This document shows, piece after piece, positions 1,156 to 58,500 of a stretch of 64,000 bases of DNA. The DNA is taken from the NCBI RefSeq assembly GCF_000003815.2, contig NC_049984.1, positions 1,733,186 through 1,797,185 of the forward strand, given 5' to 3'. The position numbers and the translations under genes were made by a program. Each line of letters begins with the position of its first letter. Within the stretch, counting starts at the first letter, position 1. The notes under the pieces are model-generated. The model was given only the letters and a program-made list of their open reading frames with translations, was not told where the DNA came from and did no database searches. This DNA comes from Branchiostoma floridae. Lineage: Eukaryota; Chordata; Leptocardii; Amphioxiformes; Branchiostomatidae.

Positions 1156-4100
1156 TTAAGGTCTTCATTCCTTAAAGGCGGTGAGAGAGAGGGGAAAGTG
1201 GCCCTGATCGCGGACATGGGAATAGAGGAGGACTCCTTCACAATCAAGTCCTTACTGCACCAGGTACGAAAGTTAGCATCTGATGAGTAATGTGCTTAAT
1301 ATAGTTATGTTCCACCTCATGGCAGACGTAGACGGGGACGCCAACCTACTACTTATCTACAGTACGTCCAACGGCTAATGGGAGATCATCACGGCCAGAT
1401 CAACCCCCGGCAGCTTCGCCAGCTCGCTGCCGATAGGCGGAACTGGAGAGGGCTTGCGGTCGCCTGCGCTGCAGCCGACCGATGATGATGATGATGATGA
1501 TAGTTATGTAGGAACAGATGACCTTTGTCACGGAAAGTTTGTGGGGATTTTATGTGTGTACAAAGATACATCTCGGTGGACTTGATTCGTTTGGCTAGCA
1601 GACATAGGATCGACAGGTATAGGGTTCGATTCCTGGCCAGACGGTGTGGAAAAGACACGAGTTTCCTCACTTCACCTGTACCCGGGTGTAACATGAGTAC
1701 CAGACTTCGATTTGGAAGGTAAAAGATGGTGGAAGGGGAAGGATCTGCATCTGCATCTGCATAGGATACCCCCAAATGACCCCGCGAGGGGCAAAAGTAG
1801 GGGGGGGGGGAGCTGAGGCTCCCGGGTTAGGGCGGGCAGGCCGCCTGCCTGGCACGGAAGTGCTCAACGTTGGGAGCGCTTACAACCGTGCCAGGCAGGG
1901 CATTCCACTCGGGAATTGTGCGTGGGAAAAAAGAATGTTTGTAGATATCGGTGCGTGCAAATATGTGTTGATATTTGAAGTCGTGACTACCCCNNNNNNN
2001 NNNNNNNNNNNNNNNNNNNNNNNNNNNNNNNNNNNNNNNNNNNNNNNNNNNNNNNNNNNNNNNNNNNNNNNNNNNNNNNNNNNNNNNNNNNNNNNNNNNN
2101 NNNNNNNNNNNNNNNNNNNNNNNNNNNNNNNNNNNNNNNNNNNNNNNNNNNNNNNNNNNNNNNNNNNNNNNNNNNNNNNNNNNNNNNNNNNNNNNNNNNN
2201 NNNNNNNNNNNNNNNNNNNNNNNNNNNNNNNNNNNNNNNNNNNNNNNNNNNNNNNNNNNNNNNNNNNNNNNNNNNNNNNNNNNNNNNNNNNNNNNNNNNN
2301 NNNNNNNNNNNNNNNNNNNNNNNNNNNNNNNNNNNNNNNNNNNNNNNNNNNNNNNNNNNNNNNNNNNNNNNNNNNNNNNNNNNNNNNNNNNNNNNNNNNN
2401 NNNNNNNNNNNNNNNNNNNNNNNNNNNNNNNNNNNNNNNNNNNNNNNNNNNNNNNNNNNNNNNNNNNNNNNNNNNNNNNNNNNNNNNNNNNNNNNNNNNN
2501 NNNNNNNNNNNNNNNNNNNNNNNNNNNNNNNNNNNNNNNNNNNNNNNNNNNNNNNNNNNNNNNNNNNNNNNNNNNNNNNNNNNNNNNNNNNNNNNNNNNN
2601 NNNNNNNNNNNNNNNNNNNNNNNNNNNNNNNNNNNNNNNNNNNNNNNNNNNNNNNNNNNNNNNNNNNNNNNNNNNNNNNNNNNNNNNNNNNNNNNNNNNN
2701 NNNNNNNNNNNNNNNNNNNNTCGTGACTACCCCGGGTGCGCCCTTTGGCAGGCTTCAGAATATTGCTGGCGTCTATGTTCAATATTATTGTTGACTACTT
2801 TATAGAAAAAGGATGGTCTCCGTTTCCCAATATCGTGCTCTATACACGTTGGCTCAGTAACACCCACGGCCACTTGGAGCTTAAAATGACTATAGGACCA
2901 CATTTACCATGTTTACCTTATGTCTAGACGCCTATCCTTTCTATATGGCACTGTTAGACACAATGTACTGTAGACACAATGGGTTGATAATGTATGACTT
3001 CCGGCCTACAGACCAGCTTTACCTTTATGTATTGAAGTGTATCTTTGCCTTTTCTGCCCCAGCTATGTTAATGACCTACGCCCTGTTGGACCTGGGGCCT
3101 AAACCTTTACATTTTTAAGTGCATCTTTGCCTTTTTTTGTGCCTGCTCACCAGGCCGACCGTGGCGAGTTGGACCTTGTCCTGCACGCGGGGGACCTCAG
3201 CTACGCGGACAACTTCGGGACGACTTTCGGCAGCGGCGACGGCAACAACTCCTGGGTATGGGTGCAGTACATGACGTCACTGCATGACGTCACCGCCAGG
3301 GTACCCTACATGACCTGCCCGGGAAACCACGAAGCGCAGGTGTTTGTTTGTTTGTTTGTTTGTTTGTTTGTTTGTTTGCTTGTATGAGAAGAATCACGTC
3401 TCAAGCACGGATGTTTTGGTGCGTGTACATTTATTTGGTGTGTAGGTAGGTCTTATAATGCTTGAATTATAGGCCCCCTAGCTGTGTGTTACAGCACTAC
3501 AGCGGAACTTTCGGTTTTGGTATTTCCTGTTCTGGACACGCTATGGTCATGATTTTTGAGTGGTAGATACCTCTTGGGAGGGATGCTAAGGCATGTAGAC
3601 CCCCTGGTGTTTTGGGGACTGTAGGGGCAAATTTTGTTTCAGAGTTTGACAAATAATGATTTTGTCTTTCTTAGTTTGACTTTGCCGCCTACCGGAACTG
3701 GCTGCACATGCCGGGGAACGAGAGCGGGTCCTCGTCCCCATACTACTACTCGTTCGACTACCTCGGAGTTCACTTCGTCGGCATCTCGACGGAGCACGAC
3801 ATGCGCGGAAACTCCTCTCAACACAGGNNNNNNNNNNNNNNNNNNNNNNNNNNNNNNNNNNNNNNNNNNNNNNNNNNNNNNNNNNNNNNNNNNNNNNNNN
3901 NNNNNNNNNNNNNNNNNNNNNNNNNNNGCGGGACTCCTCTCAGCACAGGTAAGGGCACGATCTACGCGGGAACTCCTCTCAGCACAGGTAAGGGCACGAT
4001 CTACGCGGGAACTCCTCTCAGCACAGGTAAGGGCACGATCTGCGCGGGAACTCCTCTCAGCACAGGTAAGGGCACGATCTGCGCGGGAACTCCTCTCAGC

Positions 4101-55500: not shown

Positions 55501-58500
55501 GGTACGTGGGAGGGTACAGCAAGCTGCTGAGGTTCGGCATGATGTCAACGGTCTACCTGGTGGTGGCTATAGTACAGGTGAGGGTTCATTATCAGGTACA
55601 GGTGAGGGTACGTAGGAGGTTACAGCAAGCTGCTGAGGTTTGGGATGATGTCAACAGTCTACCTGGTGGTGGCTATTGTACAGGTAAGGGGAGAAAGGCC
55701 ACAGATTTCTTTCATTGCAGTGGATCCTCTGCTGCACTAGCCTGTGATTACACAATCTCTTGCTGGCTGTACTGATGATCATAGGTGGTGGCAACCGTAA
55801 GGCCGGCTGCTAGGAGTAGGAGCGCGATTTTAGTCAGGCTACTGCTGCACTTATCTGCATCACCTACAACCAGCTTTCCCCAGTGTTTTGCACCATCTTA
55901 TAGATAATCACACGTTATTACACTTTCAGCCGGCTGGGCGACAGTGCTGGCCTAGTACTGCCCAACGAATGGCTTCTAGTTGTTGTTGGAAAAAAGTGGT
56001 ACATCCTTCATCGATTATGTTTATTTCTTCCACAGTGGCTTTTCTTCACCTTCTTCTATGAACGTTTTGTTGAGGACAAGCTGGGGCAGTTTGTGGACCT
56101 CTGCTCCATGGCAAATGTAAGTGAAACTGTACATATTATAGCTGTCATATTTTCCTTTATTCAACCTTTACACACAACAATAAGTCAGCTCACTCCAGAA
56201 GCTTTAGAGACTAAATCTGTCCCCTTGCCAACCAGAGTTAACATTCCTTGGACATGTAAGAAAAGTATGCCAAGACTTGGAGCTGGTATGATAATGATAA
56301 TCTTGCTAAACAACCACTGCCTTCAAAAAAGAAGTCAAACCTTATAGTAGATTAGAAACCAATGTTATGTACTAAATAATCTTACTCTTATTTTGGGACT
56401 GTACGTGCAATTAGCCTTCGGGCATGATTTTGCAAATAAACTTATTATTAGTATTCTTATTATTAGTAATATGTGTGTTTATTCCATAATCATTTCCATG
56501 CCCAGGTGAGTGTGTTCATCATGGCTAACACCCACTTCGGGTACTACATCCACGGGCGCTCCGTCCACGGGCAGGCCTTACTCAGACCAACTTCATACTT
56601 TACTCATTAATGACTCACACCAGTCATTAGTTATATGTTAGTTACATGTGTGTTTATTCCATAATTGTTTCTATGCCCAGGTGAGTGTGTTCATCATGGC
56701 CAACACCCACTTCGGGTACTACATCCACGGGCACTTGGTCAGCAGACACCTGTATACCTAAATGTTTGCCATGTTAGACTTGCTGGTGGAAAAGTGTACT
56801 TGCGTTGGTTTCACTAATTTCTGTTATCCCTGACCAGGTGAGTGTGTTCATCATGGCGAACACCCACTTCGGATCCACGGTCATGCCTTACTCAGCAATG
56901 TCTCACACCAGTCTGTACATGCTATAATCAGTAATATGTACATATTTTTTATTCCATAATCGTTTCCATCCCCAGGTGAGTGTGTTCATCATGGCCAACA
57001 CCCACTTCGGGTACTACATCCACGGGCGCTCTGTCCACGGTCAGGCCTTACTCAGCAATGACTCACACCAGTCTGTTAATAATACATGTATGTGTGTACC
57101 TGACTGTATTTTATAGTCCATTTATCATTTCCATCCCCAGGTGAGTGTGTTCATCATGGCGAACACCCACTTCGGGTACTACATCCACGGGCGCTCCGTC
57201 CACGGCCAGGCAGACACAGGCATACAGGAGATGTACGAGATGCTGGTCAGGGAAGAGGTGAGATTGCCACGAATATTCTCATTAAATCTTTTAATAGAAT
57301 AATTCTTCAATCAATGACTCTTGCAATCACGTAAAACACATACTTCTAAATTTTCGATGTCTGTTCAGTACATTTTGTACATCTTGATCACAGAATGACC
57401 TAGTCTTGCGAGATCTTGAGACTATGTCCGAGACTTTTCCTTTGATTAAGTGTGACAGACTAGCTTTACCTATAATAGTAATAGTATTCAATTACAAGAG
57501 GGCTGGCATAAATTTTCGAGATTTAAGAAGATTTCATTCACTGCAGAAAAATTTCAAATTTTCTTTTTTCTTGTTACGTAGAAGAAAGTGTACTGTGTAT
57601 CGTGGTCTAGACTTGGCTTACTGGTAGCTCAAGACAAATGCCATTATGTTGTAATATAGGCAATTTATTGAAAAGGGTAAATTGTCCTACTCTTTCTAGT
57701 CAAGTGTAACTATAGAGGGTCAAGTGAGCAAACTGCCAACCATCTCATACAGAAGCAATGTTTACAGCATGATTGATAGATGTGATACTGTAAACATTTA
57801 CGTTCTGAATGTGTCGCCTTCCTCCCTCCCCCCAGGAGAACCGGTGTGGCCAGCGCGGGCTGCTCGCCAACACAGACAACCAAACGTTTGAGATGTCCCT
57901 CCCACACAAGCTCAGGGACCAGTACGACAGTATTATCAAACCACTCCAGGTAAACAAAAATATATCCTAGTTTGTTCAACCTAGAGAATCAAACTGTTGC
58001 TTAAAAGCTGTAGTGAAAAGCTTTCAGAGGCATCAAAGGTAGTCCCATGACCTGGGAGTCAGAGCTCACACAGGCCATGTGACACAAGGGTGTTGAAGAT
58101 GAGGGGAGGTGTCGGCAACTTTGGTCACAGTATAGGAATGGGGATCAGGATCTCATGTGTACTGCCTTTTACGCCTCTCTGTCAAGGATGATGATTATTT
58201 GATCTGGGAGTCATCATGTGTTGCCCTACCAGTAGTCCCTCTCGTTTGTTTGTCTCTTTTACTTTTAGTTACTGTTTATTTTACATTAGTTAACGGTTTT
58301 GTCCCATCGAAACCTGTTAAAGACTATGAATGATGTGCTTTGTCAAGGCAGAAAAACTTGATGAGTTCCTGAACCCTGGCTTGACTCGTTCTTGTTGTTT
58401 TATCTGTTAACATTCCTTTAATTTCATTATTGCACATGTTAATCCATATTTATTCTCCCAACAGCAACAGGCAGCAGCAGCCAGGGGTCAAAACAGGCAA

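What the first reader, a model, noticed from the sequence alone, without database searches (positions are those of the whole stretch)
3675..57257. Splice-site-bearing exon edges are tandemly copied across several unrelated genes
At least six independent cases: phosphatase exon 3 end (about 29 copies), gene A exon 3 end (2), gene B exon (5), TMEM67 exon 8 end (3), exon 20 start (2), exon 22 end (4) and exon 24 start (5). The phosphatase last exon (3 copies) is similar but lacks a splice site. In nearly every case the unit straddles the exon-intron boundary and includes an intact donor or acceptor, not intron alone. Random tandem duplication should hit introns far more often. Either splice junctions are preferred initiation points, or cells tolerate such duplications only where the real site wins. 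I recall, unverified, that exon-edge minisatellites were described at the amphioxus Adh locus; the density here suggests a genome-wide process.
Basis: partly seen in the sequence, partly recalled or inferred. Interest (0 to 1): 0.88.

Follow-up and report, generated by a model that had tools for sequence, protein, structure and literature searches.

The report
Duplicated exon edges in amphioxus genes
Several amphioxus genes carry extra tandem copies of exon ends with their splice sites, a known oddity called mirages, and here the extra copies have changed at silent sites but hardly at all in the protein they would spell, which dead copies should not do.

Summary
The window is Branchiostoma floridae. 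'Gene B exon (5)' has no gene support. The kind is known: amphioxus 'mirages' (Adh3, globins, PGBD5, TnC). 'Nearly every case' is wrong: a scan blind to exons finds 15 local duplications in three genes: 6 over a splice junction, 2 over a stop codon, 7 in intron only. In TMEM67 4 of 9 hold a junction against 1.2 expected (P=0.02), but rotation tests are not significant; the genome-wide test could not be run. New here: splice-edge copies differ from the real exon almost only silently (23 silent, 4 replacement; 38% silent expected if copies are neutral; P=7e-7), at 18% silent divergence against a published synonymous diversity of 4%. Stop-edge copies look neutral (14:23). The splice-edge copies seem to share history with working exons instead of lying dead in introns. 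Haplotype misassembly is not excluded.

The parts
3675..3827 (+). Phosphatase exon 3, real copy; its donor lies in the N gap 3828-3927
   Evidence: tblastn with acorn-worm proteins; N runs
3928..5044 (+). Array of 28 full and 1 partial units: 33 exon nt + GTAAGG
7410..7598 (+). Phosphatase last coding exon with stop codon
7634..7810 (+). Two further copies (second partial) of coding end + stop + 3' flank, 117-nt unit
12817..12969 (-). Gene A last exon, real copy
12425..12767 (-). Two downstream copies of gene A coding end + stop (12605-12767, 12425-12571); the farther one decayed
15339..15481 (-). Gene A exon 3, real copy
15119..15227 (-). Second copy of gene A exon 3 end with donor
19502..20267 (.).
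44819..44997 (+). TMEM67 exon 8, real copy
45006..45285 (+). Two further copies of exon 8 end with donor (45006-45054; 45180-45285)
53523..53583 (+). Copy of exon 20 start with acceptor, 446 nt upstream of the real one
53978..54148 (+). TMEM67 exon 20, real copy
55148..55288 (+). TMEM67 exon 22, real copy
55376..55693 (+). Three further copies of exon 22 end with donor, with nested 12-24 nt donor repeats nearby
56471..57046 (+). Four copies of exon 24 start with acceptor; the third broken
57141..57257 (+). TMEM67 exon 24, real copy
60390..60494 (+). 53-nt unit twice, wholly inside TMEM67 intron 29: a counter-example

Best explanation
These are amphioxus 'mirages': minisatellite-like tandem duplications over an exon edge. 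A segment with the last or first 33-76 nt of an exon and the adjoining splice signal was duplicated. The added copies fall into the intron because splicing keeps using the site joined to the exon body (first copy for donors, last for acceptors), so the event costs little. A border is not needed to start the event; it is what survives and stays visible. The exon half is repeatedly put back into, or exchanged with, the working exon as the unstable array grows, shrinks and converts, so it stays protein-like while the intron half decays. Shown: the arrays, the gene models, the silent-only pattern. Inferred: origin by tandem duplication and unequal exchange, site choice by splicing, exposure to selection through array instability in a very large population.
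For: Arrays and models. The B. floridae protein P0002 equals the model over 533 of 533 residues from exon 15 on, and the repeated edges occur once each in P0002 and P0001 where covered. Silent-only pattern in five splice-edge arrays: 23 silent, 4 replacement unique changes, P=7e-7 against a null in which the real exon changes only silently and copies at random; one copy per array 19:3, P=5e-6; with ambiguous edges 28:17, P=9e-4, recounted 29:17, P=6e-4. Silent divergence 25/139 sites, replacement 4/510. Stop-edge copies 14:23, just the neutral expectation. Known instability of mirages (PMC3087553 section 16), short conversion tracts (PMC12500494 section 10), Ne about 1.7 million (PMC12862219 passages). 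Intron-only duplications exist too (7 of 15).
Against: The phosphatase last-exon copies look neutral (1:5 and 1:7) though array exposure should act on them too. One exon 24 copy has a frame-breaking 7-nt gap. Counts are small and from one window chosen because it looked striking. The block ends were set by similarity. Local allelic diversity is unknown. No RNA, long-read or second-species DNA was available.
Confidence: 0.55

Rival explanations
1. Assembly of two haplotypes: allelic exon edges of a highly heterozygous animal were joined in tandem, or the array of one haplotype was joined to the exon of the other, so 'copies' are alleles.
For: Copies differ like alleles, silently. An N gap abuts the largest array. 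PMC3087553 reports that one globin mirage was wrongly assembled in the draft while the mirage itself was real. Unequal crossing-over between alleles would look the same.
Against: Silent divergence 0.18 against published 0.0397: P=1e-9, and 2e-4 even at 0.08. Two haplotypes cannot give 4, 5 or 29 copies. Mirages were seen by RT-PCR and trace data elsewhere.
Confidence: 0.17
2. Junction-initiated duplication: splice junctions, through R-loops, pausing or a sequence signal, are preferred starting points.
For: 4 of 5 tandem units of about 50 nt or more in TMEM67 hold a junction (P=0.004); two units end only 6 and 8 nt into the intron.
Against: Rotation tests not significant. Two arrays lie on stop codons, seven duplications are intron-only. 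Intron parts vary from 6 to over 100 nt. AG|GT not enriched.
Confidence: 0.1
3. Dead duplicates seen by tolerance and survivorship alone: copies are neutral after birth, and exon-edge ones are merely found more easily.
For: Stop-edge copies behave so: 14:23. Site order fits tolerance.
Against: 23:4 in splice-edge copies, with intron parts clearly diverged.
Confidence: 0.08
4. Copies are used in RNA: repeated AG|GT sites act as donor and acceptor, so messages can be stitched from different copies and selection sees the copies directly.
For: Three arrays repeat AG|GT (phosphatase exon 3, exons 22 and 24). Such dual-specific sites work in polyubiquitin (PMC10809524, abstract). It would explain why stop-edge copies differ.
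Against: Exon 8, exon 20 and gene A exon 3 copies lack AG|GT at the edge yet show the same pattern. Step-wise splicing at the edge would not put copy sequence into the message. Known proteins hold each edge once.
Confidence: 0.1

Closest known systems
Amphioxus 'mirages' (Adh3, globin BflGb6/BflGb9, PGBD5, TnC; PMC3087553 sections 11 and 16 and passages, PMC3902484 passage)
   Same: Minisatellite-like tandem repeats over 5' or 3' exon edges with intact splice signals in B. floridae; unit lengths of the same range; annotated proteins hold each edge once
   Different: Four arrays in one gene; a unit with only 6 intron nt; silent-only divergence of copies, which the main text of PMC3087553 does not treat ('synonymous' occurs 0 times)
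Dual-specific splice sites in tandem repeats, polyubiquitin UBC (PMC10809524, abstract and section list only)
   Same: Phosphatase, exon 22 and exon 24 units repeat an AG|GT that could serve as both sites
   Different: Units are partial exons lying in introns, not whole coding monomers; use not shown
Intron gain by tandem duplication of AGGT (Rogers model, cited in PMC3087553; PMC4974935 seen in a listing)
   Same: Tandem duplication of a segment that holds a splice signal
   Different: The duplicated copies sit inside existing introns; AG|GT in only 3 of 6 arrays

Membership tests
amphioxus mirages | Tandem repeat whose unit spans an exon-intron boundary | tested here: met
   Six arrays; for the phosphatase the real donor is in an N gap and is inferred from the units
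amphioxus mirages | Both 5' and 3' exon edges can be affected | tested here: met
   Donor edges: phosphatase exon 3, gene A exon 3, TMEM67 exons 8, 22; acceptor edges: exons 20, 24
amphioxus mirages | Unit length in the reported range (10-72 bp in Adh3, 150-160 bp in globins) | tested here: met
   39, 51, about 124, 165-180 nt; exon 20 spacing of 446 nt is outside
amphioxus mirages | Regular splicing is not disturbed (RT-PCR) | not testable with these tools
   Only indirect: known proteins hold each edge once
amphioxus mirages | Germline and somatic length instability | not testable with these tools
   One assembly, no reads
Rogers AGGT intron gain | Duplicated segment holds AG|GT that becomes donor and acceptor of a new intron | tested here: not met
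   AG|GT at the duplicated site in 3 of 6 arrays; 19 of 58 TMEM67 sites overall. Age of the introns not tested
junction-initiated duplication (reader) | Excess of duplications over junctions against intron-only ones | tested here: inconclusive

The most novel reading that the evidence does not exclude
Intronic copies of exon edges evolve under the same protein-level constraint as the working exon, for longer than alleles normally last, because the unstable array keeps swapping spare copies into the working position. Mirages would then be living spare parts of exons, and exon edges would be enriched because only repeats with a selected half stay similar enough to keep recombining.
Probability: 0.3. 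Interest if true: 0.78.

Novelty: new member of a known kind. Interest (0 to 1): 0.5.

Why it matters
Mirages have been offered as raw material for new introns, but how they arise and persist is open. Silent-only divergence of intronic exon copies would mean that minisatellite turnover keeps exposing them to selection. It gives a simple count that any annotated amphioxus genome can test, and it could explain the position at exon edges without a special initiation signal. If the pattern is due to haplotype mixing instead, it warns that exon-edge repeats in highly heterozygous assemblies need read support.

Tried and rejected
Pfam on stretches read through with X at stops found no family at 12.0-21.0 kb on either strand. 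Rfam (gathering threshold) and ARAGORN found nothing, so my impression of a tRNA-like SINE between the exon 20 copies (about 53670-53760) stays unproved. A first silent/replacement count used wrong start points for two exon 24 copies and gave 34:55; the starts were then found by sequence and the count redone. Frames of gene A exon 3 and the phosphatase last exon were wrong and were put right. Position counts (4 of 58 junction windows, 189 of 1769 intron windows, 16 of 82 exon-only windows) do not favour junctions; I give them little weight because intron windows include the array copies themselves. A Fisher test used stop-edge totals of 12:22 entered by hand; recounted as 14:23. The 'ambiguous edge' count 28:17 counted one shared change twice and left out two; recounted 29:17. 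AGGT intron gain as general cause: rejected. Pure conversion from the exon as cause of the silent-only pattern: rejected by reasoning, since a copy would still gather random changes after the last conversion.

Literature on selection in mirage copies: searches listed nothing that tests it, as far as titles and abstract starts show; 'synonymous' does not occur in the main text of PMC3087553; supplements were not read and the Adh paper is not held.
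Full report
WHAT THE WINDOW IS. The TMEM67 gene model from the window equals the B. floridae meckelin-like protein P0002 over 533 of 533 residues, from exon 15 to the end; P0002 does not cover exons 1-14, for which B. lanceolatum P0001 was the guide. Gene A, on the minus strand, matches the 298-aa B. floridae protein C3ZC13 (P0121) from residue 9 on; all 7 hits of its search are Branchiostoma, within that tool's length limits. 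The phosphatase is closest to acid phosphatase type 7-like proteins of acorn worms. The window therefore is B. floridae. N runs lie at 1994-2720, 3828-3927 and 11416-11515.

GENE MODELS. TMEM67: 30 coding exons, 29 GT-AG introns, open 995-aa frame. Gene A: donors 16262, 15338, 14560, 13936 and 13500 and a last exon 12969-12817; its first exon was not found. Phosphatase exons were placed by homology; the junction into the exon at about 3153 is not settled and the donor of exon 3 lies in the N gap.

THE ARRAYS. Phosphatase exon 3: unit of 33 exon nt plus GTAAGG, 28 full units (38-39 nt, one of 45) and 1 partial, with little variation among units. A 100-N gap stands between the real exon end and the array, so true copy number is unknown. 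TMEM67 exon 8: a 51-nt unit (43 exon, 8 intron) present twice, and a third copy 165 nt on. Exon 22: 76 exon nt plus donor, four copies, with nested 12-24 nt repeats of the donor motif. Exon 24: five acceptor-edge copies, the third broken. Exon 20: two copies 446 nt apart. Gene A exon 3: two copies. Two more arrays repeat a coding end with its stop codon: phosphatase last exon and gene A last exon. The 5-copy array at 19502-20267 has no gene support; by eye the supposed acceptor or donor is absent in some copies.

IS IT MORE THAN CHANCE, AND IS IT AT EDGES. A sliding 80-nt scan against 800 nt on each side, with short-period repeats masked, gives 15 local duplications in the three gene spans (grouped by hand into loci); the highest score in 759 shuffled windows was 13.5, the threshold 14.5. 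Six hold a splice junction, two a stop codon, seven only intron: five in TMEM67 (among them 53 nt x 2 at 60390-60494) and two in the phosphatase, one weak (15.5) and one a 33-nt repeat that ends before the exon it precedes. In TMEM67, 4 of 9 hold a junction; uniform placement of segments of the same length expects 1.23 (P=0.02), and for five tandem loci with units of about 50 nt or more 0.94 (4 seen, P=0.004). Rotating all junctions against all copies gives P=0.41, 0.19 and 0.11 for sets of 9, 6 and 5 loci. The window was chosen because a reader noticed these arrays, so the P values flatter the case. Enrichment is possible but not shown.

WHAT THE COPIES LOOK LIKE INSIDE. For five splice-edge arrays (11 copies besides the real ones) I counted differences from the real exon within the similar block. 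Unique changes: 23 silent and 4 replacement; TMEM67 alone 20 and 2. Random change would be 24% silent (kappa 2); if the real exon changed only silently and the copies at random, 38%. P is 7e-7 on the second null, 5e-6 for kappa 4. With one copy per array the count is 19:3, P=5e-6. With the differences in ambiguous TMEM67 edges added it is 28:17, P=9e-4, recounted 29:17, P=6e-4. Per site, silent divergence is 0.18 (25 of 139) and replacement divergence 0.008 (4 of 510). Both replacement differences in gene A are residues found in other amphioxus proteins (QFSMPQ in P0123 and P0125-P0127; L in P0122, P0123 and P0125-P0127), so that copy may carry no replacement of its own. The phosphatase exon 3 array adds 3:2 against the real exon and, read by eye:1 among its units.

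CONTROLS. Stop-edge copies: phosphatase last exon 1:5 and 1:7, gene A last exon 6:3 and 7:11 (the last with 57 gap positions). Unique changes together 14:23, 38% silent, just the neutral expectation (P=0.58). Fisher's test of 23:4 against this gives P=3e-4, against the phosphatase alone 8e-5, against gene A's last exon alone 0.007. Intron parts of the splice-edge copies differ at 14 of 43 sites in gene A and at 3 to 12 of 26-30 sites next to the exon 24 acceptors. For exon 8 copies 2 and 3 BLAST gives 78% identity over 110 columns that include the exon part; a forced end-to-end alignment gave 32 of 74, which overstates it. Silent sites and introns have moved while amino-acid sites have hardly done so.

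WHAT IT MEANS. Dead intronic copies should not do this. Alleles would, but published pi at synonymous sites is 0.0397 (PMC12862219, passages), and 25 silent differences at 139 sites would then be far too many (P=1e-9; 2e-4 at 0.08; copies of one array are not independent). That estimate comes from a partly inbred, short-read sample, and local diversity here is unknown, so haplotype mixing is strained, not excluded. The reading I prefer is exchange and exposure: arrays grow and shrink, a contraction puts a spare copy into the working position, and a replacement change in a spare copy is punished then. With Ne near 1.7 million, a selection coefficient of 1e-6 cuts replacement substitutions to 12%, and 3e-6 to under 0.1% (origin-fixation formula; the exposure rate itself is unknown). 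Mirage instability, including somatic, is cited in PMC3087553 (section 16); conversion tracts in B. floridae are short, mean 99 bp (PMC12500494 section 10). The neutral look of the stop-edge copies speaks against a universal rule.

WHY THE COPIES MAY BE HARMLESS. In each splice-edge array the site joined to the exon body keeps its place. By simple counts (donor consensus matches, pyrimidines before the acceptor) the real site beats all its copies for exons 8, 20 and 24 and gene A exon 3, but not exon 22, where the last copy scores higher; the phosphatase could not be compared. Three arrays repeat AG|GT, which could work as donor and acceptor (dual-specific sites, PMC10809524, abstract) and would let splicing step through the array without changing the message. 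This is untested here.

AGAINST WHAT IS KNOWN. The passages read name this structure 'mirage' and list Adh3, globins, PGBD5, TnC and two cited loci. The original Adh paper is not held. This window adds TMEM67 with four arrays, an acid phosphatase and an amphioxus-only gene, so I file it as a new member of a known kind. The silent-only divergence is the part I did not find reported, within the searches named in Tried and rejected.

Noticed in passing
The middle copy is half-constrained in look (6 silent, 3 replacement), the far one decayed.
   Followed up: yes
57141 and copies at 56506, 56681, 56838, 56976: Exon 24 and all its copies begin CAG|GTGAGTG, a donor-like motif right at the acceptor, the form of a recursive or dual-specific splice site.
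   Followed up: partly
3828-3927: A 100-N gap sits between the real exon 3 end and its 29-unit array, so the assembler broke inside the array.
   Followed up: partly
25157-25424: 134-nt unit twice in tandem, 93% alike, in no gene model made here; a related stretch lies at 25687-25793 on the other strand.
   Followed up: no
38012-38088 and 38864-38995: 37-nt self-complementary repeat in TMEM67 intron 1, matching itself on both strands; looks like a small inverted-repeat element.
   Followed up: no
40625-41728 (minus strand): Reverse-transcriptase frame (PF00078, E=9e-21) inside TMEM67 intron 3. Frames at 10462-11352 (-) and 46409-47020 (+) look retroelement-like to me but gave no Pfam match.
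   Followed up: partly
29624-32269 (minus strand): Long open frame of 882 aa with four RRM stretches (PF00076); one uninterrupted frame, RBM12-like by recollection only.
   Followed up: partly
P0002: The held B. floridae meckelin-like protein is only 540 aa and starts near exon 15, although the window encodes all 30 exons; the public gene model may be split.
   Followed up: no
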